NCBI RefSeq assembly: GCF_000250635.1
Contig: NC_016940.1
Span: forward strand, 248,001 to 312,000
Reading direction: 5' to 3'
Origin: Saprospira grandis str. Lewin
Lineage (GTDB): Bacteria; Bacteroidota; Bacteroidia; Chitinophagales; Saprospiraceae
Length of the DNA stretch: 64,000 bases
Position 1 is the first letter of the stretch, and each line of letters begins with the position of its first letter. Below the pieces are notes generated by a model. It was not told the DNA's origin. It did no database searches and saw nothing but the letters and a program-made list of their open reading frames with translations. A program made the translations under genes and the position numbers. Positions 1-60,593 of the stretch are shown one piece after another.

Positions 1-121
1 AGGGGGGCGGCGCAGCCGCAGACCCAAGTTTTTGAGCGCAGCGAAAAAACTGCAGGGCCGAGCAGACCTGCGAGCCCCGCACAGCCCGACCCCAGCCGAA
101 GGCTGGGGCAGCCCCAAAAAA
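1..121 (+). repeat. Class 1 hairpin element, copy 1 (cut by window edge)
   Basis: GC-rich dispersed element carrying the fixed core GCCGAGCAGACCTGCGAG and the fixed end GCCCCAAAAAA. Its three hairpin slots hold GCGGC/GCCGC, GTTTTT/AAAAAC and CCCCAGCC/GGCTGGGG. It lies 17 bp upstream of the phosphatase gene. The left end is missing because the window starts inside it. Plus orientation is defined here as the strand on which the core reads as above and the CCCCAAAA end is on the right. Confidence 0.85.
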
Positions 122-138
122 TCAATAAACTACTACTT

Positions 139-663
139 ATGAGTTTTCTAAACTACTTATCTGAAATTAAGACCTTCATTTTTGATGTGGATGGCGTTTT
201 TACGAATGGCGAACTGCTGGTGCAGGAAGATGGCCGTTTGCTACGCAGCATGAACGTTAAAGATGGCTTTGCCTTTAAGCTGGCCCTAGAAAAAGGCTAT
301 GAGATTTTTATCATTACGGGCGGCCGTTCTGAGGGCGTTTGGCGCCGTTTTGAGGGTTTGGGCCTGCCTGCTGGCAATTATTTTGCGGGACAGCACGACA
401 AACTTTCTTGTATGCGAGAGCTGATTGAAGCCGAGCGCATCAATTTGGACCACTGTTTATATATGGGCGATGATTTGCCAGATTATGCGCCTATGCGCTT
501 GGTGGCTTTGGCTTGCTGCCCAGCCGATGCCGTGCCTGAAATTCAGGCCGTTAGCCAATATGTTTCGCCTAAAAAAGGGGGCTTGGGTGCTGTGCGTGAT
601 GTCATTGAGCGAGTCTTAAAAGTGCAGGACCAATGGCCGCAGGAAAAAATTACGGAGCTCTAA
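139..663 (+). CDS. kdsC: KdsC-like HAD phosphatase (3-deoxy-D-manno-octulosonate 8-phosphate phosphatase type)
   Basis: This 174-residue protein has the compact C0-type HAD fold without a large cap. The first motif, FDVDGVFTNG, places the nucleophile and acid at Asp16 and Asp18. A Thr-Gly-Gly motif (IITGG) follows near residue 60, and YMGDDLPD near residue 110 supplies the Mg-binding acids. Known family members remove phosphate from KDO 8-phosphate in lipopolysaccharide core synthesis in the cytoplasm, usually as tetramers. Length and motifs fit that family; an N-acylneuraminate-9-phosphatase type activity is the main alternative. The last 31 bp overlap the next gene, so the two are probably translated together. 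Confidence 0.82.
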   Translation: MSFLNYLSEIKTFIFDVDGVFTNGELLVQEDGRLLRSMNVKDGFAFKLALEKGYEIFIITGGRSEGVWRRFEGLGLPAGNYFAGQHDKLSCMRELIEAERINLDHCLYMGDDLPDYAPMRLVALACCPADAVPEIQAVSQYVSPKKGGLGAVRDVIERVLKVQDQWPQEKITEL

Positions 664-1523
664 TAGGCGCTTTTTTTCGCCTGATTCGCTGGCCCAATCT
701 ACTTCTGTTGTGGATTGGGCAAGCTTTGTTTTACCTCCTACTTTTACGCCCCTTAGGCGAAGAAAATTGGTCCATTTATCTACTTTATGCTTTGGCAACA
801 GTTAGTTTGGCTGCTGCGGGCTACCTCATCAACGACTATTACGATTTGGAAATAGATCGTTTGAATGAGCGGAAAGGGCCATTGGGCCAAGAAATTTCTA
901 TTTTTTGGGGCTTTGTTCATTATGCTTGGCTACAGCTCTTGCCCTTAAGTTTGGCGGCTATTTATTCGCCAAGCTTTCTTTTGCCCATTTTGCTGGGCAT
1001 TAGTTTTTTGCTTTGGGCCTATTCTGCTCATCTTAAGGCTTGGCCTTTGGTTGGAAATTTATTGGTGGCGGCTTTAGTCTTGGCGAGTTTGGGCCTCTAT
1101 TATATAGAAGCCCTACCCTATTTGCGAGAAAACCGCTGGGCCAAAACCTTTTTTGAGGCCTATTTGGTTTTTGCCTTTGGCAGCAATTTGGTCCGAGAAA
1201 TAGCCAAAGACCGAGAAGATCTAGCAGGCGACCAAGCCAAAGGGACCTTTACCTTAGCCTATTATCTGCCTAGCTGGGCCCTCAAAAGTTTGCTCTTTTT
1301 TCTTCTTTTGGGCAGTTTGGGTACAGGAGTGGGTTTAGTTTGGCCTTATTTCAGGCTATTTTCAGGCTATTTTTGGGGTCATTTTTTGTTGCTAGCAGCA
1401 CTTTTGTTTTTGCTTATTTTTGTCTTAATCCGAGCAAAAACTAAAAAAGATTGGCGCCAACTCAGTCTGTTACTCAAAATATATATGGCCTTAGGCTTAG
1501 CGGCCTTGGCTTGGTTGCCATAA
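633..1523 (+). CDS. UbiA-family prenyltransferase, membrane protein
   Basis: A 296-residue polytopic membrane protein with about eight hydrophobic segments. The first Asp-rich motif, NDYYDLEIDR, is at residues 67-76 (Asn67, Asp68, Asp71, Asp75), and the second, KDREDLAGD, is at 192-200. These motifs bind Mg-pyrophosphate of a prenyl donor in UbiA enzymes. The acceptor cannot be read from the sequence; geranylgeranylglycerol-phosphate synthase-like, heme or quinone prenylation are all possible. The ATG at 633 lies inside the phosphatase gene, and no later Met precedes the first membrane segment, which supports this start. A strong terminator follows immediately. Confidence 0.85.
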   Translation: MAAGKNYGALIGAFFRLIRWPNLLLLWIGQALFYLLLLRPLGEENWSIYLLYALATVSLAAAGYLINDYYDLEIDRLNERKGPLGQEISIFWGFVHYAWLQLLPLSLAAIYSPSFLLPILLGISFLLWAYSAHLKAWPLVGNLLVAALVLASLGLYYIEALPYLRENRWAKTFFEAYLVFAFGSNLVREIAKDREDLAGDQAKGTFTLAYYLPSWALKSLLFFLLLGSLGTGVGLVWPYFRLFSGYFWGHFLLLAALLFLLIFVLIRAKTKKDWRQLSLLLKIYMALGLAALAWLP

Positions 1524-1524
1524 A

Positions 1525-1556
1525 AAAAGAGCCCCTGAAAATTCAGGGGCTCTTTT
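1525..1556. terminator. Bidirectional intrinsic terminator
   Basis: A perfect stem (AGAGCCCCTGAA with its complement, two-base loop) has A-runs on the left and T-runs on the right. It sits between the prenyltransferase gene and the convergent NUMOD4 gene and can serve both. Confidence 0.85.
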
Positions 1557-1576
1557 GTAAAAAAGCAGGCTAAAAC

Positions 1577-2439: not shown

Positions 2440-3297
2440 CTAATAAGTTTTGGTCATTCGGCTAGGGACGACAAGGATATAGTCTGCTTTTTTGTAGTGT
2501 TCTCGGTCCAATTTCGAGATATCTTCTTGTTCTACGGTAGTAATTACGGCCAGTTTAATTTCGGGTTTTTCCTCTTTAATATAGTAGACGATTCCCTCAT
2601 GAAAATCGGAGTGGAAGCTTCCGTTGAAGTGTAAGAACAGCTCGCCTTCATTCCAGTTAGAGAGGGTAAAATGGGCCATAGTAGCATCTTTTAGCATTTG
2701 GGCATGCGGAAAACTTTCGTCTCCGCCGGCCATATCGAGCATTTTTTGGTAGCAGCCTAGTTCCATATTGGTGGCAATGGGCAGGGGGGCAAAAAAGACC
2801 TTAGAATACTCGGGCAGATTATCGAGTTGGTCTAGGCCTTGGCGGCTCACCATAGAGGCATATCGGCGGGGGACATTGGTGCAGGCGAAGCGCAGGCCAT
2901 TTTCTCTTGCAAACTCGACTAATGGTTTATAATCGGTGCGGTAATTGGGCCAAAGACGCATTTCTTTTTCAAAATTGGAGCTACTGATGTAGCCAAAAAA
3001 GTACTCATTCATAATCACCTGATTATCGGCCTCAAACATTTCGGCCCCCATCACCAGCTCCTCTCCTCTTTGGGCGTAAAGGTCGCGGCTGAGCTCAAGT
3101 TGCAACCAGTGGCTAATTGTATTATTATGCAGTTCGCCAAAAAAGACCATATCCTGCTTGCTCAATTGCTTAAGCATTTTTTTGTACTTCAGTTTTTTGC
3201 CTTTGCTATCATAAAGTTGGTAGGCTTCTTTTTCTTGGGCCATAGTTTGCCCAACAGTTAGGCTAAGTAGGAGTAGCAGACTCCAAAATGTTTTCAT
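2440..3297 (-). CDS. ChaN-like exported protein (DUF399 family)
   Basis: 285 residues beginning with a signal peptide (residues 1-20, cleavage after TMAQ likely). The segment DMVFFGELHNN is the family hallmark Gly-Glu-x-His motif, and RLWPNYRTDYKPLVEFA plus VPRRYAS follow as in ChaN-like proteins. ChaN of Campylobacter binds heme, and the family is related to the TIKI/TraB fold; whether this protein binds heme or cleaves peptides is not shown by the sequence. It lacks a lipobox Cys, so it is probably periplasmic. It is a single-gene unit with a class 1 element 34 bp upstream of its start. Confidence 0.75.
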   Translation of the reverse strand: MKTFWSLLLLLSLTVGQTMAQEKEAYQLYDSKGKKLKYKKMLKQLSKQDMVFFGELHNNTISHWLQLELSRDLYAQRGEELVMGAEMFEADNQVIMNEYFFGYISSSNFEKEMRLWPNYRTDYKPLVEFARENGLRFACTNVPRRYASMVSRQGLDQLDNLPEYSKVFFAPLPIATNMELGCYQKMLDMAGGDESFPHAQMLKDATMAHFTLSNWNEGELFLHFNGSFHSDFHEGIVYYIKEEKPEIKLAVITTVEQEDISKLDREHYKKADYILVVPSRMTKTY

Positions 3298-3330
3298 AAT
3301 TGATTCTTTTTTATGTATAAAAATTTAGCT

Positions 3331-3470
3331 GTTTTTTGGGGCCCGCGGCCGGCTAGCCTTCGGCTAGGTCGGCCGCCGCTATGCTGCGCCGCTCGCAGGT
3401 CTGCTCGGCCCTGCGTCGCTTTGCTCCTTGGTCTGGCGCTTTGCGCCACGGCTGCGCAGCGCTGGGCCAA
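3331..3470 (-). repeat. Class 1 hairpin element, copy 2
   Basis: Minus orientation. The T-run/GGGGCC end faces the ChaN-like gene start; the GCTGGGCCAA end lies 16 bp from the end of porP. Hairpin slots hold GGCGC/GCGCC, a weak middle stem, and a long CGGCCGGCTAGCC-type stem. Confidence 0.85.
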
Positions 3471-3486
3471 GATAACGCTTGGCGGC

Positions 3487-4482
3487 CTACAAGATAGGAC
3501 AATTCTTTTTGCTAGGAAATTTGGGTAGGGGCCGCCAAATATAGACAAATAAGAGTTCAAAGCCGCCTTGGCCCAAAGTTGCTGGCTGAAAATCGGAATA
3601 ATTGACATCATAGCTCAGGCCCAGCTCCCAGTTATTTTGATACTGCAGACCAATACGGGGCTGCCAGCTATCTTGGAAGCGCCAAGAGAGGCCGGTATAC
3701 AGACTGAGTTCTCGGCCGGGGCGTTGATCTAGGGCATAAAAAAAGAGCTGGCTGCTGCTCCACTCCTGATAAGGTCCTTGTTGTTGGAACTGAAGCGCCG
3801 TTTGGGCCTTCCATTTTTGGCCCCAGCCATAAGCTAATTGGATATAATGCAATTGTCGGATAGGCAGATAGCGGTCTTCTTCTCCTAAAAAGCTCTGCTT
3901 GGGTTCATGCAAATGAAAGAGGCCCAGTCCCCATTTCAGATGCCATTTTTTGCCTTGATAATTTAGGGCCAAGCCAGCGCCCAGATCGCTAAACAAAAAG
4001 CTTTGGGCCCTGGCTAAAGCGGGTTCTTGCAGCTGCCAGCTGGGATCAAACTGATCGCCCTGAAACTGTTCATCAAAGCTAGCGCCCTTATAATTGAGAA
4101 AGCGCTGGCCAGCCCCCAAATAGCCTCCTATATTCAGCGACCAATTTGCGGCTAAAGGCTGTGTTCGGGCCAAGCTCAGGCGCAAGAGCGATTGTCCTAG
4201 GCCCAAATCTCCAGCCTGATCGGCTTGGAGATAGAGGCCCCAATGAAAGCCGGCCAAGGCCTCTTTTTGCTCCAACCCTAGGCCCAAACTCTGGTAAGCC
4301 ACGGGCACTGCCGACCATTGTTCTCGGAGCTGTAGATTGGCTCGGTAGCGGCCATCAAAGGCGCCTGTTTCTGCGGGCGAGGCGGTCCAGAGGCTACGGT
4401 CAAATTGGCTAAAGTGCAAATCTTGGCCAGAGAGCCAAGGCCCAAGGCCCAAAAGAAATATAAGTAGGTAGAACTGTTTCAT
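3487..4482 (-). CDS. PorP/SprF-family type IX secretion membrane protein
   Basis: 331 residues from the chosen Met. The reading frame extends 87 codons further upstream but that stretch is repeat DNA, whereas Met at 4482 begins a clean signal peptide (MKQFYLLIFLLGLGPWLSGQ). The mature start DLHFSQFD is the classic beginning of PorP/SprF proteins. The rest is beta-strand-rich, with many aromatic-ended strands and a C-terminal strand ending in a hydrophobic pattern typical of outer-membrane barrels. The family supports secretion of surface adhesins by the type IX system, usually next to a partner secreted protein. No partner is adjacent here, so this copy is an orphan. Confidence 0.85.
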   Translation of the reverse strand: MKQFYLLIFLLGLGPWLSGQDLHFSQFDRSLWTASPAETGAFDGRYRANLQLREQWSAVPVAYQSLGLGLEQKEALAGFHWGLYLQADQAGDLGLGQSLLRLSLARTQPLAANWSLNIGGYLGAGQRFLNYKGASFDEQFQGDQFDPSWQLQEPALARAQSFLFSDLGAGLALNYQGKKWHLKWGLGLFHLHEPKQSFLGEEDRYLPIRQLHYIQLAYGWGQKWKAQTALQFQQQGPYQEWSSSQLFFYALDQRPGRELSLYTGLSWRFQDSWQPRIGLQYQNNWELGLSYDVNYSDFQPATLGQGGFELLFVYIWRPLPKFPSKKNCPIL

Positions 4483-4524
4483 GCAAAGCCATTTTAAGGA
4501 GAACAAGGGTGGAAAAGGGGGCCT

Positions 4525-4651
4525 TGGCCCAGCGCTGCGGAGGGGTGGCCGAAGGCCAGACCGAAGCCGCCGCAGGCGGCTGAAGGGCCGAACAGACCTG
4601 TGAGCCCCGCAGCATAGCGGCGGCCAGCAAAGCTGGCCGCGGGCCCCAAAA
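4525..4651 (+). repeat. Class 1 hairpin element, copy 3
   Basis: Plus orientation, variant core with GAACAGACCTGTGAG. Slots: GGCCGAAGGCC, GCCGCC/GGCGGC and CGGCCAGC/GCTGGCCG. It lies just upstream of porP. Confidence 0.85.
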
Positions 4652-4710
4652 CACCTACTAAATATAAGAAACTCCTTGAAAAAAGGCGGATTCTGTCTGG
4701 GTCTTGGGGG

Positions 4711-4741
4711 CAAAAAAAAAGCCCTTGGCGGGGCCAAGAGC
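4711..4741 (-). terminator. Probable intrinsic terminator of the small gene at 4772-4963
   Basis: On the minus strand a CTTGGC/GCCAAG stem with a short loop is followed by GGC and nine T. It lies 30 bp past the end of the small open frame, which supports that frame being transcribed. Confidence 0.55.
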
Positions 4742-4771
4742 AAATATACTTACTTAAGAAACAGAATAATT

Positions 4772-4963
4772 TTAACGTTGACGGCCTTTGACGGCTTGGC
4801 TGGCCCAATGAGCATTCATTTGCCCAAAAGGCTGCTGGCGCTGCTTGCCCTGATCGAGGACCAAAGTAAGGCTTACTGCATGAGGCTGTAGAGCAGGAGC
4901 GGCCTGTGCTAGGCTGTTCGTTTTGGTGGTAATTCCTGCTTGAAGAATGCGCTGCTTGTTCAT
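4772..4963 (-). CDS. Small hypothetical protein, 63 residues
   Basis: No family recognised. The product (MNKQRILQAG... KGRQR) is polar, rich in Gln and Ala, with no signal peptide or membrane segment and a basic C-terminus. The evidence that it is a gene is a minus-strand terminator 30 bp downstream and its position in an otherwise empty stretch outside repeat DNA. It could be chance. Confidence 0.35.
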   Translation of the reverse strand: MNKQRILQAGITTKTNSLAQAAPALQPHAVSLTLVLDQGKQRQQPFGQMNAHWASQAVKGRQR

Positions 4964-5154
4964 AATATTCAGCTTTTGGGTGAAATAATATTTTGTCTAA
5001 AACTTCTTTTACATAAAATGCTATGGAAGTATAAGGGCTTAAAAGAACTTTTGCTAGTTGACGCAAGTCAAAAGCTGGGCCAGTTGTTTTATTTTTTTAG
5101 TGCTGGCCGCCAAGCTCCTTATTATTAGGCATTTAGAAAAAGGTTAAAGAAAGC

Positions 5155-5215
5155 TCAAAAAAGAAAGCGCCAAATTGACACATAGCCGCTTGGTTTGGCT
5201 GTCAATTTGGCGCTT
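5155..5215 (-). terminator. Long perfect hairpin with T-tract, probable minus-strand terminator
   Basis: A 16-bp perfect stem (5165-5180 with 5200-5215, arm AAGCGCCAAATTGACA) encloses a 19-nt loop. On the minus strand it is followed by TCTTTTTT. It lies 72 bp past the small frame at 5287-5484. The stem is unusually long for a terminator. Confidence 0.55.
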
Positions 5216-5286
5216 GCGTAGACAAAAGCTAAATATATGGAGGATGGTATATTTTGGCGATTGCCTAAGCAAGCGCCGGGGCTTAC

Positions 5287-5484
5287 TTAATTAGCGTGCT
5301 TGCTATTTTTCCAACTGAGGTGAAATTGGCGCATAGCGGGATAGTGGGCAAAGCATGGGCTTTGTCCGGCTAGGGCTGTGGCGGCATCCTGAATAAGGTT
5401 AGAAAAATGAAGCATAGTTAATTTTTTGGGGTGATCCCGATAAATTACGATTGCCAAACTGCGGCGGATGGGATTCAGTTCCAA
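5287..5484 (-). CDS. Small hypothetical protein, 65 residues
   Basis: Unrecognised. MELNPIRRSL... is basic, with no membrane segment. A Met at codon 24 (MLHFSNLIQ) is an alternative start giving 42 residues. The strong downstream hairpin with T-tract on the same strand and the non-repeat location are the reasons for listing it. It is transcribed divergently from rlmN. Confidence 0.35.
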   Translation of the reverse strand: MELNPIRRSLAIVIYRDHPKKLTMLHFSNLIQDAATALAGQSPCFAHYPAMRQFHLSWKNSKHAN

Positions 5485-5654
5485 GCTGGGGAAAAGTTTT
5501 TTTAGCTAAGCGAAAACCTAAAACACAAAAATCTATTTATCAATAACTTCTGAAAAATATTTTTTTTTCAAATAGGCCAAATGAAAACTATGGCCTTCTT
5601 ATTTCTCCTCTAGAGTTAATCAGTAAAAAGCTAGTCTGCCCCAAGAATAATCCG

Positions 5655-5662
5655 TACCTTTG
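5655..5662 (+). promoter_or_regulatory. Candidate Bacteroidota -7 element for rlmN
   Basis: TACCTTTG is an exact match to TAnnTTTG, 19 bp upstream of the rlmN ATG. No clear -33 TTG is visible, so this is suggestive only. Confidence 0.45.
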
Positions 5663-5681
5663 GGCCTCAAATTTAACTACA

Positions 5682-6728
5682 ATGGGCTTACAACAAGATA
5701 TTCGACTATTAGAAATGGAGGACCTACTCGCCTATTTTAAGGCGAAAGGCGCTCCCAAATTTAGAGCTAAACAAGTTTTTGAATGGCTGTGGAAAAAAGG
5801 CGCTCACAGCTTTGCCGAAATGACGAACCTCTCTAAAAAATTGCGCGAACAATTAGAGGAGGATTTCTGTATCCGCCCCATTACGCTCGATATGGAGCAG
5901 CGCTCTAATGATGGCACCATCAAAAATCGCTTTCGCCTACATGATGGCCACCTCATCGAATCGGTGCTGATTCCCGTCCCTAGCCAAAACCGCTTTACGG
6001 TCTGCATTTCTTCTCAGGTGGGTTGTAGCCTGAGCTGTAGTTTCTGCGCTACGGGCAAAATGAAACGCCTGCGCAATCTAGATGCCCCCGAAATTTATGA
6101 TCAGGTCCTTTTGGTCAACCGCCAATGCGAAGAAACTTACGGCCACCCTATTACCAATGTGGTCTATATGGGCATGGGCGAACCCCTACTCGCCTATCGG
6201 CCCGTGCTCAAAAGTGTGGAGTTGCTGACAGCTCCCTGGGCCTTGGATATGGCCCCTCGCCGCCTCACGATTAGCACGGCGGGCATTGCCAAAATGATTA
6301 AGCGCCTAGCCGATGATGGCATCCGATCCAATCTGGCCCTCTCCCTGCATGCCGCCGATGATAGTAAGCGAAATGAGATTATGCCTATTAATGAGCAAAA
6401 TAATCTAGAAACGCTCATCGAGGCCCTGCAATATTTCTATGAGCAGACCAAAGACAGCAAACTGACCTTTGAGTACATCGCTTTCAAGGATTTTAATGAT
6501 AGCATAGAGGATGCCCAAAAATTACTGGCTCTCTGCCAACAATTGCCCAAGGTGAAGGTCAATATTATTGAGTACAATCCCGTAGAGGGCGTCACCCTAA
6601 CCAAAGCCGCTGCCGAAAAAATTGACCGCTTTTCAGAATACCTCAACCGCAGAGGGGTGCCCTGCACTGTCCGCCGTTCTAGAGGAAAAGATATTGATGC
6701 CGCCTGCGGCCAGCTAGCCAATAAGTAG
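5682..6728 (+). CDS. rlmN: 23S rRNA (adenine2503-C2)-methyltransferase / tRNA A37 C2-methyltransferase
   Basis: 348 residues. A radical SAM enzyme that methylates C2 of A2503 in 23S rRNA, and in known homologues A37 of some tRNAs, in the cytoplasm. The [4Fe-4S] cluster motif CSLSCSFC supplies Cys115, Cys119 and Cys122. Cys108 and Cys342 (DAACGQ) occupy the places of the two mechanistic cysteines. MGMGEPLL and LALSLHA are the expected SAM-binding segments. Family length is usual. Met at 5682 is the first Met and is preceded by a candidate promoter element. It is a single-gene unit ending before a class 1 element. Confidence 0.95.
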   Translation: MGLQQDIRLLEMEDLLAYFKAKGAPKFRAKQVFEWLWKKGAHSFAEMTNLSKKLREQLEEDFCIRPITLDMEQRSNDGTIKNRFRLHDGHLIESVLIPVPSQNRFTVCISSQVGCSLSCSFCATGKMKRLRNLDAPEIYDQVLLVNRQCEETYGHPITNVVYMGMGEPLLAYRPVLKSVELLTAPWALDMAPRRLTISTAGIAKMIKRLADDGIRSNLALSLHAADDSKRNEIMPINEQNNLETLIEALQYFYEQTKDSKLTFEYIAFKDFNDSIEDAQKLLALCQQLPKVKVNIIEYNPVEGVTLTKAAAEKIDRFSEYLNRRGVPCTVRRSRGKDIDAACGQLANK

Positions 6729-6743
6729 TTGTTTTTAAAGGAG

Positions 6744-6866
6744 GTTTGGGGCCTCCCGCAGCAAGCTGCGGGCGCTACGCTTTGGGGCTCGCAGGTCTGC
6801 TCGGCCCTGCGCAGGCTTCGCCTGCTTGGTCTGGCCTGACGGCCACCCCGCCGCATCGCTAGGCCA
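6744..6866 (-). repeat. Class 1 hairpin element, copy 4
   Basis: Minus orientation, 15 bp past the rlmN stop. Slots: GGCC/GGCC with a TGAC loop complement, GCAGGC/GCCTGC and CCGCAG/CTGCGG. Confidence 0.85.
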
Positions 6867-6995
6867 GTCGCTTCGCTCCTCTACTGCCGCATCGGTTACT
6901 CCCTTTGGTCGTCGAGCTGCGAACTAAAGTCCTTGCTGTGACCAGCTCCTTCTAAAGGCAGTTAGCTATAGGCCCATGGCAAAGCCCATGGACCC
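6867..6995. other. Intergenic stretch without recognised gene
   Basis: No convincing coding frame or tRNA-like cloverleaf. It contains a CCATGG-containing palindrome (GCCCATGGCAAAGCCCATGG) near 6972-6991. Confidence 0.5.
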
Positions 6996-7030
6996 AAAAG
7001 GATCAAAACTGAAGTTTTGATCCTTTTTTT
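6996..7030 (+). terminator. Intrinsic terminator
   Basis: Perfect 15-bp stem (AAAAGGATCAAAACT with its complement, loop GA) followed by T-run. It lies 267 bp past rlmN, so it ends a long rlmN 3' leader that includes the repeat, or an unrecognised transcript. Confidence 0.8.
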
Positions 7031-7228
7031 ATGCGCTGTTTAAAATTTTGTGTTTCGCCTTTTTACTGCCTAGGGGCTTGTCCCTAAGCGACTATTGGCC
7101 AAATCCTAGCCAGCTAAACGCCCAAATTTTATACAGGCAGACAACATCCTAAACCCTCCTTTTTTTAGCACCAATTGTTAAGGACAAGTTAATTAAGGGA
7201 TTTAACGAACTTATTATTTGATAGCAAT

Positions 7229-7505
7229 GAGCTAGCTTTTTGTTAGCTCGACCTAGCTTTCTACTTGCTCGACCTAGCTTTCTACTTGCTCGACCTAACT
7301 TTTTACTTGCTCGACCTAGCTTTTTACTTGCTCGACCTAGCTTTCTACTTGCTCGACCTAGCTTTCTACTTGCTCGACCTAGCTTTTTGCTTGCTCGACC
7401 TAACTTTTTACTTGCTCGACCTCCCTTTTTACTTGCTCGAGCTAGCTTTTTGCTTGCTCGACCTAACTTTTTACTTGCTCGAGCTAGCTTTTTACTTGCT
7501 TTTTA
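7229..7505. repeat. 21-bp tandem repeat, about 12 copies
   Basis: GCTCGA recurs 12 times at exact 21-bp spacing from 7246 to 7477. The unit is ACTTGCTCGACCTAGCTTT plus two bases, with small substitutions. The period is a multiple of three, so two plus-strand frames stay open (heptads such as LARPSFL and LDLAFYL), and one minus-strand frame is open without a start (KKLGRAS). No ribosome site, signal peptide or non-repeat coding part supports translation. Confidence 0.95.
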
Positions 7506-7734
7506 GGTCCAGCAGGCGGCGAAGCCGCCGCAGGCTGAGGGATGGGCAGCAGTGGCCGCAGGCCAGACCGAGACAGCGAAGCTGGCGAAGGGCCGAGCAG
7601 ACCTGCGAGCTGCGAGACAGCCCGACCCGCCCAATAATTCATGAGGGTTTTAACCCTCATTTTGTATAAGCTCGCAAAGCGATGCCGCTTTGCGCTGGGT
7701 TTCAACCCGGCGGAAGGGGCAGCCCCAAAAAAAA
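7506..7734 (+). repeat. Class 1 hairpin element, copy 5, with nested class 2 hairpins
   Basis: Plus orientation. Fixed core as in other copies. The third slot, which in copy 23 is GACCCGCC-CAAAG-GGCGGGG, here holds about 80 bp of extra DNA containing two class 2 palindromes (ATGAGGGTTTTAACCCTCAT and CTGGGTTTCAACCCGG). It begins where the 21-bp tandem repeat ends. Confidence 0.85.
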
Positions 7735-7856
7735 GAAAACTTAAAGACTTTAATTTTTCGGATATATCCTGTATAATGAGAGCAGAAAATTAAGGCCTAG
7801 AAATAAACATAGCTAGACCAAAGACATTATACATATAACCAAAACATCTCTATCTA

Positions 7857-11545: not shown

Positions 11546-11674
11546 TTTTGGGGCCCGCGGCCAGCATAGCTGGCCGCCGCTATGCTGCGGGGCTCACAGG
11601 TCTGTTCGGCCCTGCAGCCGCCTGCGGCGGCTTTGGTCTGGCCTTCGGCCACCCCTGCGCAGCGCTGGGCCAAA
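11546..11674 (-). repeat. Class 1 hairpin element, copy 6
   Basis: Minus orientation. Slots: GGCCTTCGGCC, GCCGCC/GGCGGC and CGGCCAGC/GCTGGCCG. Ends in GCTGGGCCAAAA, directly followed by the AGCGAAACTTGC terminator. Confidence 0.85.
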
Positions 11675-11800: not shown

Positions 11801-11937
11801 CAGGCCCGAAGGGCCGCAGGCTGAGGGATAGTAGGCAGTGGCCCGCAGGGCTAGACCAAGGAGCCGAAGGCGACGCAGGGCCGAGCGAGCAGCGAGCTGC
11901 CGCATAGCCCGACCCGAGCGAAGCGAGCGGGCAGCCC
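11801..11937 (+). repeat. Class 1 hairpin element, copy 7
   Basis: Plus orientation, divergent core (GCCGAGCGAGCAGCGAGC). Third slot CCCGAGCGAAGCGAGCGGG. It ends at GGGCAGCCCC, and the next base begins the stop codon of the gene at 11938. The 11720-11800 stretch to its left holds a GGGATTCCTTAGGG motif also found at 18484-18503. Confidence 0.8.
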
Positions 11938-12420
11938 CTAATAATAATTAATATAATAAAGGAAAAGCCCTGTTAGCTGGCCAAAAAGGCTTGTGAGGCT
12001 ACTATTGAGTTTTCCTCTGAGCAACTCCTCATAGCTTTGGCCCTTTTTTGGGGGTTGTTTGGCGGCAATTAAGGCCCTAATTTTTTTGCGGGCTTGCGCA
12101 TACTGCTGCCAGCTATACCAAGCCAGATAAATAGCCAAAACAAAAGGGAAACTTCTGGTTAAATCGACCTCCCAATAATCAAAAATCCAGATAGCGATAG
12201 GCAACATAATTGCGCCCTGTGCCAAGGCCGCCAAAAACTCTATGCCTTGGATCAGCAGCGTGTTTTCGCTAAACAACTTACGGTCTCCGGCCTTGACAAA
12301 AGGGATAGCCAAGAGCAAAAGCATAAAGCTAAAGACGATCTTAATCAGTAGCGCCAGTAAGTTACTAAAGACAGAAATGGCCAAAAGGCTAATAAAATAG
12401 GCAAATATAAGTTGAAGCAT
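11938..12420 (-). CDS. Hypothetical membrane protein, possibly truncated at the C-terminus
   Basis: 160 residues from Met at 12420. The frame can be extended to 12456, but that lies inside a terminator hairpin, so the shorter start is preferred. Three to four hydrophobic segments fall at about 5-45, 60-85 and 90-110, followed by a basic cytoplasmic-looking helix. No family recognised. The stop codon TAG is formed exactly at the border of class 1 copy 7 (the usual T-run before GGGGCTGCC is missing), so the original C-terminus may have been lost when the element arrived. Confidence 0.6.
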   Translation of the reverse strand: MLQLIFAYFISLLAISVFSNLLALLIKIVFSFMLLLLAIPFVKAGDRKLFSENTLLIQGIEFLAALAQGAIMLPIAIWIFDYWEVDLTRSFPFVLAIYLAWYSWQQYAQARKKIRALIAAKQPPKKGQSYEELLRGKLNSSLTSLFGQLTGLFLYYINYY

Positions 12421-16751: not shown

Positions 16752-16876
16752 TTTTGGGGCCTCCGCTTCGGCTTCGCCTTGCGGCGCTACGCTGCAGGGC
16801 TCGCAGGTCTGCTCGGCCCTGCGGCCTGACGGCCTTGGTCTGCGGCTTCGCCGCCCCCTTTCGCATCGCTAGGCCA
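16752..16876 (-). repeat. Class 1 hairpin element, copy 8
   Basis: Minus orientation. Slots: GCGGC/GCCGC, GGCC/GGCC and CCGCTTCGG with trailing GCGG. It separates the large exported protein from the membrane protein gene. Confidence 0.85.
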
Positions 16877-18619: not shown

Positions 18620-18757
18620 GGCCCAGCGCTGCGGAGGGGTGGCCGAAGGCCAGACCAAAGCCGCCGCAGGCGGCTGCAGGGCCGAACAGACCTGTGAGCC
18701 CCGCAGCATAGCGGCGGCCGAGCTAGCCGAAGGCTAGCCGGCCGCGGGCCCCAAAAA
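18620..18757 (+). repeat. Class 1 hairpin element, copy 9
   Basis: Plus orientation. Slots: GGCCGAAGGCC, GCCGCC/GGCGGC and a long CGGCC-GAGCTAGCC stem. Its T-run/GGGGCC end touches the cas2 stop codon with no gap. Confidence 0.88.
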
Positions 18758-21034: not shown

Positions 21035-21170
21035 TGGCCCAGCGCTGCGGAGGGGTGGCCGCAGGCCAGACCGAGCTGGCGAAGCCAGCGAAGGGCCGAA
21101 CAGACCTGTGAGCCCCGCAGCATAGCGGCGGCCGACCTAGGCGAAGCCTAGCCGGCCGCGGGCCCCAAAA
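21035..21170 (+). repeat. Class 1 hairpin element, copy 10
   Basis: Plus orientation, variant core GAACAGACCTGTGAG as in copies 3, 6 and 9. Slots: GGCCGCAGGCC, GCTGGC/GCCAGC and a CTAGGC/GCCTAG-containing stem. Confidence 0.85.
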
Positions 21171-25208: not shown

Positions 25209-25350
25209 TCTTTTTTTGGGGCCTGCCGCCTGCGGCGGCCGGGCTGTTTCGCAGCTCGCTGTTCGCTCGGCCCTTCGGCGCTTTCAGCGCCTTGGTCTGG
25301 CCTAACGGCCACTGCTGTCCATCCCTAGGCCTGCGGCCCTTCGGGCCTGC
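25209..25350 (-). repeat. Class 1 hairpin element, copy 11
   Basis: Minus orientation; the T-run/GGGGCC end begins at once after the ccmB stop. Slots: GGCC/GGCC, GGCGCT/AGCGCC and CCGCC/GGCGG. It marks the left edge of the accessory region. Confidence 0.85.
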
Positions 25351-25575: not shown

Positions 25576-25728
25576 AAGGCCAAACGGCCTAGCGATGCGA
25601 CGGGGTGGCCGTAGGCCAGACCCAGTTTTTTGAGCGCAGCGAAAAAAACGCAGGGCCGAGCAGACCTGCGAGCCCCAAAGCGTAGCGGCGCAAGGCGAAG
25701 CCGCAGCGCAGGCCCCAAAAAAAATCAA
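25576..25728 (+). repeat. Class 1 hairpin element, copy 12
   Basis: Plus orientation. Slots: GGCCGTAGGCC, GTTTTTT/AAAAAAC and GCAAGGCGAAGCCGC. It lies 65 bp upstream of the first kinase gene. Confidence 0.85.
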
Positions 25729-35984: not shown

Positions 35985-36120
35985 TGGCCTAGCGATGGGG
36001 AGCAGTGCGGCGAAGCCGCAGACCAAGCAAAAAACTTGTTTTTTTGCGCAGGGCCGAGCGAACAGCGAGCTGCGGACCGTAGCGCCGCAAGGCGAAGCCG
36101 CAGCGGAGGCCCCAAAAAAA
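35985..36120 (+). repeat. Class 1 hairpin element, copy 13
   Basis: Plus orientation, variant with GAGCGAACAGCGAGC. Slots: GCGGC/GCCGC and GCAAAAAAC/GTTTTTTTGC. The CCCCAAAAAAA end is 16 bp before the hsdR start. Confidence 0.85.
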
Positions 36121-40904: not shown

Positions 40905-41110
40905 TTAAGGGCCGAAGAAAAAAGCCCAGAGAAAAAACTAAGGTTGTGCAAAAAAGGAGAGCGAAGCGAGCCTTTTGGCCTAGCGATGGGGAGCAGTGCG
41001 GCGAAGCCGCAGACCAAGCAAAAAACTTGTTTTTTTGCGCAGGGCCGAGCAGACCTGCGAGCTGCGGACCGCAGCGGCGCAAGGCGAAGCCGCAGCGCAG
41101 GCCCCAAAAA
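40905..41110 (+). repeat. Class 1 hairpin element, copy 14, with 70-bp leader
   Basis: Plus orientation. A leader (GAAGAAAAAAGCCCAGAG, then GAGAGCGAAGCGAGCC) precedes the element proper at 40976. Nearly identical over 200 bp to copies 16 and 18. The CCCCAAAAAA end is about 10 bp from the stop of kinase 2. Confidence 0.9.
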
Positions 41111-43583: not shown

Positions 43584-43722
43584 CTTTTTTTGGGGCTGCC
43601 CCTGCGCTTCGCTTGGGTCGGGCTATGGCGCAGCTCGCTGTTCGCTCGGCCCTGCGTTTTTTTTCGCTGCGCTCAAAAAAACTGGGTCTGGCCTTCGGCC
43701 ACTGCTATCTATCCCTCAGCCG
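43584..43722 (-). repeat. Class 1 hairpin element, copy 15
   Basis: Minus orientation. Slots: GGCCTTCGGCC, a GTTTTTTTT/AAAAAAAC stem and CCCCTGCGCTTCGCTTGGG. It forms the left inverted arm of the composite 43584-44483. Confidence 0.85.
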
Positions 43723-43817: not shown

Positions 43818-44280
43818 TGGCCATAAAATAACTCCACAAAAAAATTCAGGGGTAAAAACAATTGCTATTATTTCTACCCCATAAATTTCATAGGAACCCT
43901 AGGGCCAAGGCCCTAGGCTATTGAAAAAATTGTCATCCCCTCATTCGAGGGGATTTTTTGGGGGATGTTTTTTTTGAATCTGTGGGTTGAAACCCACAGC
44001 CATACAACAATTCCATTCTACATCTATAGTGCGGAGAGGATTAAAATCCTCTGCCGCTTTGAACATGATGATTTTTGGTCCATTGATTTTTTGCCGAGAG
44101 AAATTTTCCTCCTTGTTTTTTTATGGAGGTTTTTAAACCTCCATTTAAAATGAAATGCCTTTTTGTTGCCTGGCTGTAGGTTTCAACCTACAGACCTCAG
44201 CAGTTTTTCCGCCGAAGAAAAATTTTGTTGTTTTTAGGCTTGAGCTTATTTGAAAGCCGCTATTTGAAAGGGGAATTTAA
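43818..44280. repeat. Class 2 palindrome array D
   Basis: Units in the standard order from CCTAGGGCC/GGCCCTAGG through CTGTAGGTTTCAACCTACAG. Lacks the second GTGGGTT and GCCGATGG units. Confidence 0.88.
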
Positions 44281-44483
44281 CCGCCGAAGAAAAAAGCCCA
44301 GAGAAAAAACTAAAGTTGTGCAAAAAAGGAGAGCGAAGCGAGCCTTTTGGCCTAGCGATGGGGAGCAGTGCGGCGAAGCCGCAGACCAAGCAAAAAACTT
44401 GTTTTTTTGCGCAGGGCCGAGCAGACCTGCGAGCTGCGGACCGCAGCGGCGCAAGGCGTAGCCGCAGCGCAGGCCCCAAAAAA
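44281..44483 (+). repeat. Class 1 hairpin element, copy 16, with leader
   Basis: Plus orientation, nearly identical to copies 14 and 18. The right end is 9 bp from the mcrC stop. Confidence 0.9.
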
Positions 44484-48324: not shown

Positions 48325-48497
48325 TGTTTTTTTTTGGGGCCTCCGCTGCGGCTTCGCCTTGCGGCGCTACGTTTCGCAGCTCGCTATTACTTGCTTCGCT
48401 GCGTCGGCTCCCGTTGGTCGGGTCGCTCGGCCCTGCGCAAAAAAACAAGTTTTTTGCTGGGTCTGGCCTAACGGCCACTGCTGCACATCGCTAGGCC
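48325..48497 (-). repeat. Class 1 hairpin element, copy 17
   Basis: Minus orientation, left inverted arm of the composite 48325-49297. Slots: GGCC/GGCC, GCAAAAAAAC/GTTTTTTGC, CCGCTGCGG-type. It carries about 35 extra bases (CGTCGGCTCCCGTTGGTCGG area) in the core. Confidence 0.85.
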
Positions 48498-48544: not shown

Positions 48545-49090
48545 GTTGTTGTTTTGAACCTGTGGGTTGAAACCCACAGCCATACAACAATTCCATTCTA
48601 CATCTATAGTGCGGAGAGGATTAAAATCCTCTGCCGCTTTGAACATGATGGTTTTTGGTCCATTGATTTTTCCCAAGAGAAATTTTCATCCCTGTTTTTT
48701 TATGGAGGTTTTTAAACCTCCATTTAAAATGAAATGCCTTTTTGTTGCCTGGCTGTAGGTTTCAACCTACAGACCACCGCAGTTTTTTCCAAAAAAAAAT
48801 TTTTGTCCTTGTTTTTTAACCCCATTGCTAATTGAAAGCCGCTAATTGAAAGGGGTGTTTTCTTGACGGTTTTCTAGACCTCTGGGTTAAAACCCACAGC
48901 AAAAAGGAGGGCCGTTCTACATCCAAAAAAATGAGCCGATGGTAAAAACCATCGGCCCATGAAATGTCACAGAAAAAATTGTGGTAGAAAATTATTCATC
49001 GCCATTAGGCCAGTTTTTTTCCAAGAGAAATTTTTATCCTTGTTTTTTTACCCCATTGCTAATTGAAAACCGCTATTTGAAAGGGGAATT
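48545..49090. repeat. Class 2 palindrome array E
   Basis: Same order and spacers as array C, except that the first two units (CCTAGGGCC and ATCCCCTC) are missing. GCTAATTGAAAGCCGC blocks occur at 48828 and 49057. Confidence 0.88.
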
Positions 49091-49297
49091 TAAGTGCCGA
49101 AGAAAAAAGCCCAGAGAAAAAACTAAGGTTGTGCAAAAAAGGAGAGCGAAGCGAGCCTTTTGGCCTAGCGATGGGGAGCAGTGCGGCGAAGCCGCAGACC
49201 AAGCAAAAAACTTGTTTTTTTGCGCAGGGCCGAGCAGACCTGCGAGCTGCGGACCGTAGCGCCGCAAGGCGAAGCCGCAGCGGAGGCCCCAAAAAAA
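49091..49297 (+). repeat. Class 1 hairpin element, copy 18, with leader
   Basis: Plus orientation, nearly identical to copies 14 and 16. Its T-run/GGGGCC end touches the hxlR stop codon with no gap. Confidence 0.9.
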
Positions 49298-50659: not shown

Positions 50660-50852
50660 TTCTGCTCTTTGCTAATTGAAAGTCACTATTTGAAAGGGGA
50701 ATTTAACCGCCAAAGAAAAAAGCCTTGAGAAAAAACTAAGGTTGTGCGGCCTAGCGATGCGGCGGGGTGGCCGCAGGCCAGACCAAGTTTTTGAGCGCAG
50801 CGAAAAAAACGCAGGGCCGAGCGAACAGCGAGCCCCAAAGCGCAGCGGCGCG
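50660..50852 (+). repeat. Class 1 hairpin element, copy 19, truncated and fused to a gene
   Basis: Plus orientation, with the AATTGAAAG block and the same leader as copies 14, 16 and 18; the element proper begins at 50748. Slots: GGCCGCAGGCC and GTTTTT/AAAAAAAC. The usual right end (third hairpin and GGCCCCAAAA) is missing: after GCGCAGCGGCGC the sequence passes directly into the carboxyltransferase coding region. Confidence 0.85.
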
Positions 50853-52256
50853 ATAAGGATTGGCAAATTTTTCTGCATATTCAGCTTCTTTTTCGGCCAA
50901 TTTGGCGGCGCTATCATCGGCCTCCATAATTTCTCGGCGGAAAATAATTTCTGAAGCGCCTTTAGCGCCCATCACCGCAATTTCTGCAGAAGGCCAAGCA
51001 AAATTCAAGTCGGCGCCAATATGTTTAGAGTTCATCACATCATAGGCTCCGCCATAGGCTTTGCGCGTGATGACCGTGATGCGAGGAACGGTAGCCTCAC
51101 AAAATGCATAAAGTAATTTGGCCCCATTGCTAATGATGCCATTCCATTCCTGATCGGTGCCGGGCAAAAAGCCAGGAACATCTTCCAAAACTAAAAGAGG
51201 AATATTAAAGGCATCACAAGTGCGCACAAAACGAGCGCCTTTTTTCGAGCAATCGACATCCAAACAACCCGCCAAGACCATGGGATTATTGGCAACAACG
51301 CCAATACTTCTGCCGCCAAGGCGAGCAAAACCAACTACGATATTTTCTGCATACTCTTTATTGACCTCATAAAAAGAATCAGCATCTACCAATTCTTCGA
51401 TCAAAGCACGCATATCGTAAGGATGATTGGGATTTTCGGGCACGATTGTATTTAGTGCGGGACGTTCCTCTTGGCCAGCTTCATAAGGCAGCATGGCTGC
51501 TTCTTCTTCGCAGTTTTGGGGCAAATAAGAAAGCAACTTTTTAATCTGAAGCAGACAATCCATATCATTTTGAGCGGTAAAATGCGTCACGCCAGATTTT
51601 ACGGCATGCGTCATCGCTCCACCCAATTCTTCAGCACTTACTTCTTCATTGGTCACGGTTTTTACCACATTGGGCCCCGTGATGAACATATAAGAGCTTT
51701 GCTCCACCATATAAATAAAATCGGTCAAAGCGGGAGAATAAACCGCACCGCCCGCGCAGGGGCCCATAATGGCCGAAATTTGTGGAATTACACCAGAGGC
51801 CAAAGTATTGCGATAAAAAATATCGGCATAACCGCCCAAAGACTGTACGCCTTCCTGAATGCGCGCTCCACCAGAATCATTGAGGCCCACCAAAGGCGCC
51901 CCGTTTTTTATGGCCATATCCATCAACTTGCAGATTTTTTCTGCATGAGTTTCAGAAAGAGAACCACCAAAAACGGTAAAATCTTGAGCAAAAACATAGA
52001 CCAAGCGTCCTTCTACGGTTCCATAACCCGTCACGACGCCATCGCCATAAATTTTTTGCTTTTCCATTCCAAAGTCATTGCAACGGTGGGTCACCAAAGC
52101 GCCCATTTCTTCAAAAGAACCTGGATCCAAGAAAAAATGAATACGTTCACGGGCCGTAAGTTTGCCCTTGGCATGTTGTTTCTCAATTCGTTTTTCTCCG
52201 CCACCTTGAGCCGCTTGGGCCAATTTATCTTGCAGCGTTTGTAGTTTATCTTGCAT
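50751..52256 (-). CDS. Acyl-CoA carboxylase carboxyltransferase (propionyl-CoA carboxylase beta type), C-terminus replaced by repeat DNA
   Basis: 501 codons. About 467 residues are typical of biotin-dependent acyl-CoA carboxyltransferases: [53 protein letters not shown], and the second crotonase half [22 protein letters not shown]. The enzyme transfers carboxyl from biotin to propionyl-CoA or a similar substrate. Homologues continue after FANPYRAA with roughly 40 more residues ending in a Lys-Lys-His-Gly-Asn-Ile-Pro-like tail. Here the last 32-34 codons ([13 protein letters not shown]...) come from class 1 copy 19, and the stop is within it. The gene may still work, or be a fresh pseudogene. 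No biotin-carboxylase gene is adjacent. Confidence 0.85.
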
Positions 52257-53742: not shown

Positions 53743-53888
53743 TTTTGGGGCCCGCGGCCAACTCAGCCTTCGGCTTCGGTCGGCCGCCGCTATGCTTCGC
53801 GGCTCGCTATTCGCTCGGCCCTGCGTTTTTTCGCTGCGCTCAAAAACTGGGTCTGGCCTACGGCCACCACTGCGCAGCGCTGGGCCAA
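53743..53888 (-). repeat. Class 1 hairpin element, copy 20
   Basis: Minus orientation. Slots: GGCCTACGGCC, GTTTTTT/AAAAAC and a long CGGCC...GGTCGGCCG stem. Ends in GCTGGGCCAAAA against the next terminator. Confidence 0.85.
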
Positions 53889-53925: not shown

Positions 53926-53946
53926 GGCGCCATTCAGCTCATCCGC

Positions 53947-56048: not shown

Positions 56049-56123
56049 GAATTCTTCTATTTTAGGCGGTTGAGCAGTTATTTTTTAAGCTCGAAAAGCA
56101 AGCGCAAAGCATGCGCTTCGGCT

Positions 56124-56252
56124 TAGCGCTGTGAAGGGGTGGCCGAAGGCCAGACGGAGCTTTTTTGAGCAAAGCGAAAAAAAGCGAACGGCCGAGCAGA
56201 CCTGCGAGCCCCGCAACATAGCGACCCGAGCGGAGCGAGGGGAAGCCCCAAA
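56124..56252 (+). repeat. Class 1 hairpin element, copy 21
   Basis: Plus orientation, divergent left end (GCTTAGCGCTGTG). Slots: GGCCGAAGGCC, GCTTTTTT/AAAAAAAGC and GACCCGAGCGGAGCGAGG. Its end is 29 bp from the stop of the DHHW gene. Confidence 0.85.
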
Positions 56253-57802: not shown

Positions 57803-57805
57803 AAG

Positions 57806-59347: not shown

Positions 59348-59474
59348 TTTTTTGGGCCTCCGCTGCGGCTTCGCCTTGCGGCGCTACGTTGCGCAGCTCG
59401 CTGTTCGCTCGGCCCTTCGCAGGCAAAGCCTGCTCGGTCTGCCCCTGCGGGCCACTGCTGCACATCGCTAGGCC
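59348..59474 (-). repeat. Class 1 hairpin element, copy 22
   Basis: Minus orientation. Slots: GCCC/GGGC, GCAGGC/GCCTGC and CCGCTGCGG-type. Confidence 0.85.
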
Positions 59475-59479
59475 GTTTG

Positions 59480-59850
59480 GCCTTCGGCCATAGCTGCAGC
59501 TTGAAAGCCGCAGCCATATACATACCCAATACGCTAGCGCTTTAGCTTCCCATGGCCTGCAGCTTAAAAGCCACAGGACCTGAAAACCGAATAACTTCGC
59601 CCATCTCCAATGAAGCCTGTAGGTTGAAACCTACAGCCATACAACAATTATATGCTACATCTATAGTGCGGAGAGGATTAAAATCCTCTACCGCTTTGAA
59701 CGGCCCTCAGAACTGCTTCATTTATGATTTAGTCAGCCTAGAAGATGTTTGTTTATGCAGGGTTTTAACCCTGCATACTATATTAAATTGCATTCGTTAA
59801 TTGGCTGTAGGTTGAAACCTACAGCTCGGCCCAGCAGGCCTTTAGGCTGC
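59480..59850. repeat. Class 2 palindrome array F (divergent)
   Basis: Units with different arms but the same centre: CTGTAGGTTGAAACCTACAG twice, GAGGATTAAAATCCTC, ATGCAGGGTTTTAACCCTGC, and weaker CAGCTTGAAAGCCGCAG and CAGCTTAAAAGCCACAG. The spacer CATACAACAATTATATGC resembles the spacer in arrays A and C-E. Confidence 0.8.
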
Positions 59851-59983
59851 AGGATATTTGGCCCAAAAATACAACTGCCTTCCATATTTCGATTCTAATC
59901 GCCTATTGTTAAACTGTAGTAGGGTCGGTCCAGAAAAAAAAGATAGCGCATTTTAGATACGCCCGGAGGAGTTTGTAAACTGC

Positions 59984-60311
59984 AGATTAGCTCCGGGCAT
60001 CGTTCAGAGCTGTTTTGCAAATGCAAATTAGCTCCGGGCATCGTTCAGAGCTGTTTTGCAAATGCAGATTAGCTCCGGGCATCGTTCAGAGCTGTTTTGC
60101 AAATGCAAATTAGCTCCGGGCATCGTTCAGAGCTGTTTTGCAAATGCAAATTAGCTCCGGGCATCGTTCAGAGCTGTTTTGCAAATGCAAATTAGCTCCG
60201 GGCATCGTTCAGAGCTGTTTTGCAAATGCAAATTAGCTCCGGGCATCGTTTAGAGCCGTTTTGCAAATGCAAATTAGCTCCGGGCATCGTTCAGAGCTGT
60301 TTTGCAAATGC
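59984..60311. repeat. 41-bp tandem repeat, 8 copies
   Basis: The unit contains TTAGCTCCGGGCATCGTT and CAGAGCTGTTTTGCAAATGC. Eight copies follow without any variable spacer; copy 7 has two or more substitutions (TTTAGAGCCG). A first partial unit begins near 59960 (GCCCGGAGGAGTTTG). Not a CRISPR array, since the whole 41-bp period is conserved. Confidence 0.95.
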
Positions 60312-60445
60312 AAATAAACAAGATGCGGCCGTTTTGGCTGTATTTGCATCATCCGAAACTTGCTAGACTAGCGTTTAGCTGCCGCCTTGGACCAAGAAGG
60401 ACCTAAAACGATTCTCTAGCCGCATCAAGCAAGAGTTTGCCCCAA

Positions 60446-60593
60446 AAGGGCCGAAGGCCCGCGGCTGAGGGATGGTAGCGGGTGGCGCAAAGCGCCAGAC
60501 CCAGCTTTTGAGCGCAGCGAAAAAGCGCAGGGCCGAGCAGACCTGCGAGCCCGCGCACAGCCCGACCCGCCCAAAGGGCGGGGCAGCCTCAAA
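60446..60593 (+). repeat. Class 1 hairpin element, copy 23
   Basis: Plus orientation. Slots: GGCGCAAAGCGCC, GCTTTT/AAAAGC and GACCCGCC/GGCGGGG, with a leading GGGCCGAAGGCCC. Confidence 0.85.

What the first reader, a model, noticed from the sequence alone, without database searches (positions are those of the whole stretch)
1..60593. Twenty-three copies of a modular element whose hairpin arms change but whose fixed blocks do not
All class 1 copies share blocks such as AGACC, GCCGAGCAGACCTGCGAG and GGCCCCAAAA. Between the blocks three slots always hold a palindrome, but the arm sequence differs: slot 1 GGCCGAAGGCC, GCGGCGAAGCCGC or GGCGCAAAGCGCC; slot 2 GCCGCC/GGCGGC, GCTGGC/GCCAGC, GTTTTT/AAAAAC, GCAAAAAAC/GTTTTTTTGC, GCAGGC/GCCTGC. 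Arms change together on both sides, so a fold is preserved while sequence is not. This is more than simple copying can explain and suggests hairpin exchange, templated switching, or selection on an RNA or DNA fold.
Basis: seen in the sequence. Interest (0 to 1): 0.78.

Follow-up and report, generated by a model that had tools for sequence, protein, structure and literature searches.

The report
Folded intergenic repeats with exchangeable hairpins
A marine bacterium carries a very large number of copies of a folded, unnamed DNA element between its genes; related strains keep copies in the same places but often swap their hairpin parts while the fold stays intact.

Summary
The window (Saprospira) has 23 copies; about 1,350 per genome by extrapolation. 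One strand folds into a branched structure: long-range helices P1-P3 and hairpin slots 1-3. No Rfam family reaches its cut-off. A covariance model finds relatives in 40 of 199 sampled genomes of the family (28 of 112 genera) and a few outside it; there the helices covary, and the fold and core blocks persist while arms differ.

Between two strains of one species (flanks 97.4% identical), 70 copies were paired by both flanks; of 66 parsed, 23 had at least one hairpin replaced in place, sometimes one slot only, with 40-nt flanks unaffected. P3, whose strands lie 53-73 nt apart, changed on both strands in 79 of 252 same-place pairs (five comparisons); 71 stayed fully paired.

Best explanation: short-tract exchange (gene conversion) among copies plus selection on a folded strand. 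The exchange step is inferred: swapped hairpins are no commoner in other copies than unswapped ones. Template switching alone fails, though exact loop inversions appear on the plasmid. Function and transcription are unknown; the element ignores gene direction but points its 3' end at genes. Closest kind: BOX/REP-like repeats. New variant.

The parts
1..118 (+). copy 1, class 1 core, 5' part outside the window
   Evidence: model match 1-81; end read
3335..3468 (-). copy 2, class 1
   Evidence: 3' end faces the start of ORF 2440-3297
4526..4650 (+). copy 3, class 1 with A-T core pair
   Evidence: the core pair is G-C in strain G460
6745..6865 (-). copy 4, class 1
   Evidence: 3' end faces the end of ORF 5682-6728
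7533..7729 (+). copy 5, class 1, extra hairpins inserted in slot 3
11547..11671 (-). copy 6, class 1 with A-T core pair
11819..11942 (+). copy 7, class 2
16753..16875 (-). copy 8, class 1; P3 and all three slot hairpins differ at the same place in strain G460
18620..18755 (+). copy 9, class 1; slot 2, core, one slot-3 pair and the slot-1 loop differ in G460
21036..21169 (+). copy 10, class 1; slot 2 and core differ in G460, slot 3 kept
25215..25331 (-). copy 11, class 2
25586..25719 (+). copy 12, class 1
35986..36116 (+). copy 13, class 2
   Evidence: 3' end faces the start of ORF 36137-38947
40977..41108 (+). copy 14, class 1
43589..43721 (-). copy 15, class 2
44349..44480 (+). copy 16, class 1
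48333..48497 (-). copy 17, class 2, insertion in the core loop
49162..49293 (+). copy 18, class 1
50748..50851 (+). copy 19, class 2, truncated at the 3' side (model match 50748-50928 runs past the recognisable part)
53744..53886 (-). copy 20, class 2
56120..56252 (+). copy 21, class 1
59350..59474 (-). copy 22, class 2
60463..60593 (+). copy 23, class 1

Best explanation
It is an unnamed small interspersed repeat, about 95-145 nt in most copies. One strand folds into a branched structure: P1 encloses P2 and hairpin slot 3; P2 leads through an internal loop to P3; P3 encloses hairpin slots 1 and 2 and a short core hairpin. Shown: copies stay at the same intergenic places in related strains, while one hairpin or the whole P3 domain is often replaced by another of the same design; the replaced stretch does not spread into the flanks; the helices covary across genera. 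Inferred: the exchange is short-tract gene conversion between dispersed copies, with the fixed blocks as homology. Inferred: selection on the folded strand removes mispaired products. Least certain: what the fold does. I think it most likely that the written strand acts as a folded, strand-specific molecule (RNA somewhat more likely than single-stranded DNA) in a BOX/REP-like role at gene borders, independent of gene direction.
For: In-place change in one species: 70 both-flank pairs, flanks 97.4%; of 66 parsed, 23 have at least one slot with different arms, including pairs where one slot alone differs (slot 2: 4, slot 3: 2, slot 1: 1); 13 of 70 exceed flank divergence at p<1e-4, gaps counted. 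The same between genomes that exclude the window's own: 19 of 29, 17 of 21 and 30 of 35 parsed pairs; slot differences fall on both branches (own 4, G460 6, unresolved 6). Long-range stem P3, five comparisons, one- and two-flank pairs: 252 pairs, 79 changed on both strands, 71 of these fully paired in both genomes, 25 changed on one strand. 40-nt flanks beside swapped copies (mean 0.968 and 0.941) are like those beside unswapped ones (0.949 and 0.948). Covariation: 24 of 31 pairs with double changes in 21 other-genus copies, 26 of 29 in 34 distinct copies, above all 500 shuffles. Strand: loops of type GNA 575 against 7 TNC; in the mostly other-genus alignment A7 G-T 18 against A-C 5, p 0.011, leaving out the P2 column that is U-G in 20 of 34.
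Against: No transcript or enzyme is shown. In the 103 own copies G-T against A-C is only 7 to 4 without the P2 column, and the numbers of double-changing pairs and of pair types do not exceed shuffles. Alignments A5, A7 and A8 were fitted to the model and lean towards it; no tree-aware covariation test was run. Orientation is random to genes (63 against 65), which argues against a simple mRNA role. GNA triloops are known to me (recalled) as a DNA mini-hairpin motif, which would favour DNA.
Confidence: 0.62

Rival explanations
1. Template switching at quasi-palindromes alone: each hairpin copies one arm from the other or flips its loop, so arms match without selection or donors.
For: The mechanism is published (PMC8794818 and PMC8604942, abstracts seen). 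On the plasmid 6 of 13 loop changes with unchanged arms are exact inversions against 3.4% expected. Swapped hairpins are not enriched among other copies.
Against: 0 of 25 such inversions on the chromosome against G460, 0 of 18 against G057, 0 of 16 against G152. P3 strands lie 53-73 nt apart with two hairpins between, yet change together. Whole hairpins of other length and base composition appear. P1 covaries between genera.
Confidence: 0.13
2. A mobile element (MITE- or SINE-like): the different copy at a place arrived by loss and re-insertion rather than exchange.
For: Multi-copy in many genera, with genome-specific varieties in the two looked at; ten near-identical copies in G249. The ends are constant within the genome and pair with each other, like terminal inverted repeats.
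Against: Single-slot differences with the rest unchanged and same orientation. None of the 8 empty-site candidates in ten directed comparisons was clean: elements, other repeats or remnants were there. No association with Y1 transposases: 29 of 40 carriers against 118 of 159 others.
Confidence: 0.13
3. A cis-acting mRNA element (riboswitch, terminator or 5' leader) of the neighbouring gene.
For: The 3' end lies within 100 bp of an ORF in 93 of 128 copies, against 38 of 128 for the 5' end.
Against: It faces gene starts (63) and gene ends (65) equally often; base counts show no T-run after the structure on either strand.
Confidence: 0.06
4. Assembly artefact: near-identical repeats were joined wrongly in one genome.
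For: The elements are short, numerous repeats; how the own genome was assembled could not be checked.
Against: Differences occur between other genomes and on both branches, also between the WH and QB6 plasmids. The comparison strain, identified by its contig length, is a hybrid Nanopore and Illumina assembly (PMC10508125 passages). Wrong joins would not keep P3 paired unless whole domains moved.
Confidence: 0.05

Closest known systems
BOX elements of Streptococcus pneumoniae (PMC3049150, passages read)
   Same: Small interspersed modular repeat whose ends pair with each other; module boxB folds largely on its own and can be absent or repeated.
   Different: Different phylum. There the number of boxB modules varies; here hairpins in fixed slots are replaced in place with paired arms kept, and a related fold is found in 28 of 112 sampled genera of a family.
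REP / REPIN sequences with TnpA-REP (PMC3733652 abstract start in listing and one passage; PMC3116915 and PMC8266576 search listing)
   Same: Many extragenic palindromic copies.
   Different: REPs are 20-40 bp (abstract). This element is about 95-145 nt and branched, and its carriers are no richer in Y1 transposase genes.
Template-switch creation and maintenance of RNA hairpins (PMC8794818, abstract)
   Same: Explains multi-base paired changes in stems in one step.
   Different: Described for stems in RNA genes; here whole hairpins and a long-range stem differ between same-place copies of a dispersed repeat.
Repetitive hairpin-forming elements of sponge mitochondria (PMC2800124, search listing only)
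   Same: Hairpin repeats in intergenic DNA.
   Different: Mitochondrial and taxonomically remote; not compared further.

Membership tests
Any Rfam 15 family | score above the curated gathering cut-off | tested here: not met
   0 matches on the whole window; relaxed searches on window 3200-7800 and five other-genus loci gave no match at a gathering score
REP / REPIN with RAYT | Y1 transposase of the RAYT kind accompanies the repeats | tested here: not met
   Y1_Tnp (whole family, RAYTs not told apart) in 29 of 40 carriers against 118 of 159 non-carriers, p 0.84; carrier G013 (97% complete) has none. Of 6 Y1 loci in four carriers 3 have one copy within the 3.3 kb fetched, about what the density gives; the only own Y1 gene has none
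REP / REPIN with RAYT | 20-40 bp palindrome with a GTAG or CGTC tag | tested here: not met
   element is about 95-145 nt and branched; the tag itself was not searched for
MITE | terminal inverted repeats | tested here: met
   ends pair as P1: 99.6% of cells in 103 copies
MITE | clean insertion with target duplication at an empty site | tested here: inconclusive
   8 candidates in ten directed comparisons, none clean
BOX elements | boxA, boxB and boxC sequence modules | not tested
   only the architecture was compared, from paper passages
Riboswitch or cis-regulatory leader | fixed position upstream of genes in the sense direction | tested here: not met
   63 face starts, 65 face ends
Structured RNA | covariation of helices across diverged sequences | tested here: met
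   model-fitted alignments in three of four, no tree-aware test
Structured RNA | transcription | not testable with these tools
   no expression data

The most novel reading that the evidence does not exclude
A previously undescribed structured RNA class of the Saprospiraceae and some related families, amplified to over a thousand copies in Saprospira. There a dedicated or repeat-driven exchange process continually swaps hairpin cassettes between copies, so that a genome keeps a recombining library of interchangeable hairpins on a fixed scaffold. The exchanged arms may serve as variable recognition parts.
Probability: 0.25. Interest if true: 0.88.

Novelty: new variant of a known kind. Interest (0 to 1): 0.66.

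Why it matters
Paired changes in both arms of a stem are taken as the best proof of a functional fold. Here they appear in place, within one species, as replacement of whole hairpins. This natural system, with an estimated 1,350 copies per genome, would let one measure how fast such changes arise, by which repair route, and how much is mutation rather than selection. It also adds a structured element, found in 28 of 112 sampled genera of its family, that matched no Rfam family.

Tried and rejected
Strand or replication bias: the place lists jump to about 3.0 Mb, but the same jump appears in G152, so I take it as a listing artefact; sampled copies are 66 on + and 62 on -. REP/RAYT: not supported. 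Intrinsic terminator: no T-run by base counts on either strand. Riboswitch: orientation random. Viral origin: 0 exact core matches in the viral contigs. Known Rfam family: no match at a gathering score. Loop inversion as the general mechanism: seen on plasmids only. Tandem arrays as a regular partner: only 4 of 128 own copies and 4 of 40 other-genus loci have one within 150 nt on the 5' side, 0 on the 3' side. Donor enrichment as proof of conversion: swapped hairpins are no commoner elsewhere than unswapped ones. Integron attC sites: considered, not tested. Limits of the counts: my pattern detector finds 20 of 23 window copies, so 464 kb gave 128 copies against 143 by model; surveys scored at most 17 (family), 10 (order) or 8 (phylum) candidates per genome with strict filters. 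Dropped before counting: 4 of 70 pairs unparsed, and 7 (slot 2) and 9 (slot 3) single slots. The Lewin genome paper (PMC3368406) is not held, so I cannot say whether it mentions the repeats; nine literature searches listed no paper recognisable as describing them, and two surveys of palindromes (PMC12306157, PMC13155455) do not name Saprospira in the main text.
Full report
WHAT IS THERE. The window lies at 248001-312000 of a 4,345,237-base contig in a 4,400,185-base genome. Named plasmids with close copies are Saprospira grandis WH and Saprospira sp. CCB-QB6. The tool places genome G460 in the same species; its main contig of 4,250,550 bases has exactly the length reported for S. grandis WHT (abstract), so I take it as that strain. 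A core-pattern scan gives 23 copies, and the covariance model gives the same number. A 22-nt core with up to 2 mismatches occurs 894 times in the own genome, 928 in G057 and 469 in G152, and 0 times in the reversed control. The model finds 23 copies in the window and 120 in the next 400 kb, which extrapolates to about 1,356 per genome. G057 has a similar density, 133 in 400 kb.

ANATOMY. Reading 5' to 3' on the written strand: P1 5' strand (GGCCT in many copies); P2 5' strand, often AGCG(A/C)TG; an internal loop; P3 5' strand; slot 1 hairpin; AGACC; slot 2 hairpin; a core GCCGAGC...GCGAGC that closes a short hairpin; P3 3' strand; P2 3' strand (CGTAGCG, CATAGCG or AGCCCG); slot 3 hairpin; P1 3' strand; usually CCCAAA. 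Single-sequence folds give this shape in many but not all copies. On a MAFFT alignment of 15 copies with this structure written by hand, 18 of 31 pairs change on both sides and the covariation score is 0.354, against 0.155 (sd 0.014) in shuffles and at most 0.090 for slid structures. On 103 own copies the score is 0.525 against 0.150, with 650 double-change cells; but the number of pairs with double changes (20 against 18.3, reached by 45 of 500 shuffles) and the number of pair types (42 against 48.8) do not exceed shuffles, which I put down to a few recurring alleles.

RELATIVES. Pattern search found four genomes outside the genus among 199, with other arms but the same blocks. Model R1 finds 30 of 199 family genomes. 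Model R2, built from 21 copies outside the genus, finds 40 of 199 genomes and 28 of 112 genera; 31 of 348 genomes of the order, of which 5 belong to a second family (one weak) and 1, weak, to a third; and 6 of 395 in the phylum, of which 4 belong to the same family, one further is strong (G747, E 8e-10) and one weak. In these copies P1 reads for example GCGTG/CACGC, GCGTA/TACGC, GCATC/GATGC, GTGCT/AGCAT. For the 21 copies 24 of 31 pairs show double changes; for 34 distinct copies 26 of 29 do. These two alignments were fitted to the model. No Rfam family reaches its gathering score. In the two other genera looked at more closely, copies are rather uniform: ten copies each in G098 and G013 share P1 within the genome, while slot 3 varies.

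SAME PLACE, OTHER HAIRPINS. The plasmids of three strains are syntenic and carry the element at the same places and orientation in most cases, with slots exchanged in many. On chromosomes, copies were paired by 500-nt flanks. With the same-species strain G460, 70 of 128 copies pair by both flanks (97.4% identical), 35 by one flank, 9 were anchored without a detected copy and 14 were not fully anchored. Of the 70, 10 are identical, the median identity is 0.979, and 13 exceed the flank divergence at p<1e-4, gaps counted. Of 66 parsed, 15 show no change in slots, core or the first 13 bases; 23 have at least one slot with different arms. The change may involve one slot (at own C1:517409-517539 slot 2 and one loop base in slot 3), the P3 domain with slots 1 and 2, or nearly everything (window 16753-16875). 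With more distant genomes such pairs are 28 of 34 (G057) and 24 of 28 (G152); between genomes excluding the own one they are 19 of 29, 17 of 21 and 30 of 35. Placed with G057, slot differences between own and G460 are 4 on the own side, 6 on the G460 side and 6 unresolved. This speaks against an error in one assembly.

LONG-RANGE PAIRING IS KEPT. P3 strands lie 53-73 nt apart in parsed copies. Compared at the same place in five genome pairs, with one- and two-flank pairs: 252 pairs, 148 unchanged, 79 changed on both strands (71 fully paired in both genomes), 25 changed on one strand. One example is CTGG/CCAG in the own genome and GTGG/CCAC in G460.

HOW IT PROBABLY WORKS. Flanks of 40 nt beside swapped copies are as similar as beside unswapped ones. 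Linkage between slots is present but partial, and 136 of 147 own copies are distinct combinations of slots and core. Short-tract gene conversion among many copies would give this; that step is inferred. The donor test is neutral: swapped hairpins are found in another sampled copy in 19 of 33 (own) and 22 of 33 (G460) cases, unswapped ones in 100 of 131 and 92 of 131; it shows a shared pool, not a donor. Template switching predicts loop inversion: it is 6 of 13 (WH) and 1 of 7 (QB6) on plasmids and 0 of 25, 0 of 18 and 0 of 16 on chromosomes; plasmid against chromosome in the WH/G460 comparison gives p 0.0006. So it is at most a side process on the chromosome. Selection on the written strand is suggested by loops (575 GNA against 7 TNC), by G-T against A-C pairs in alignment A7 (18 to 5, p 0.011; only 7 to 4 in the own copies) and by a P2 pair that is U-G or U-A in 32 of 34. 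The GNA loops would suit single-stranded DNA as well as RNA.

PLACE IN THE GENOME. In 464 kb, 8 of 128 detected copies overlap an ORF of 110 or more codons. The 3' end is within 100 bp of an ORF in 93 of 128 and the 5' end in 38 of 128 (p 7e-12), yet it faces gene starts (63) and ends (65) equally. In several low-copy genomes the 3' end lies within about 20 nt of a stop codon of the opposite gene. The Y1 transposase family is no more frequent in carriers (29 of 40) than in others (118 of 159). No clean empty site was found among 8 candidates.

WHAT IS KNOWN. BOX elements are the nearest analogue: modular, ends paired, one module folding largely alone (PMC3049150 passages). Template switching as a maker and keeper of RNA hairpins is published (PMC8794818 abstract). 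I found no paper on this element in nine searches of the held library. Verdict: a real folded repeat that matches no Rfam family, found across part of a bacterial family, with in-place hairpin exchange; a new variant of small interspersed repeats; function open.

Noticed in passing
own plasmid G000:C2 (L045-L047) against NZ_CP110855.1 (L039): Hairpin loops with unchanged arms are exactly inverted (AAA/TTT, AGA/TCT, CAAA/TTTG) in 6 of 13 changed cases on the plasmid but 0 of 25 on the chromosome against G460.
   Followed up: partly
own C1 sample (L048-L067); 0 full pattern matches in the window: A second repeat module, ACAACAAG-hairpin-GCAGTTCGACGACC..GGGAGTAA, occurs also inserted in the element or in place of its interior (10 copies in 464 kb by pattern).
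   Followed up: partly
window 7187-7543 and 59925-60375: Tandem arrays of 21 nt and 41 nt lie on the 5' side of copies at 7533 and 60463; in 40 other-genus loci arrays within 150 nt lie on the 5' side in 4 and on the 3' side in 0.
   Followed up: partly
5' flank of the element in the own genome, -15 to -5: A further GGCC-type palindrome often precedes P1 in Saprospira, like an outer slot; I did not see it in the few other-genus flanks I looked at.
   Followed up: no
window 28335-28924, 39861-40949, 43840-44321, 48549-49134: Other dispersed intergenic repeats (families D3 and D5-D9), some with GGGTTnAAACCC palindromes, sit near several copies.
   Followed up: no
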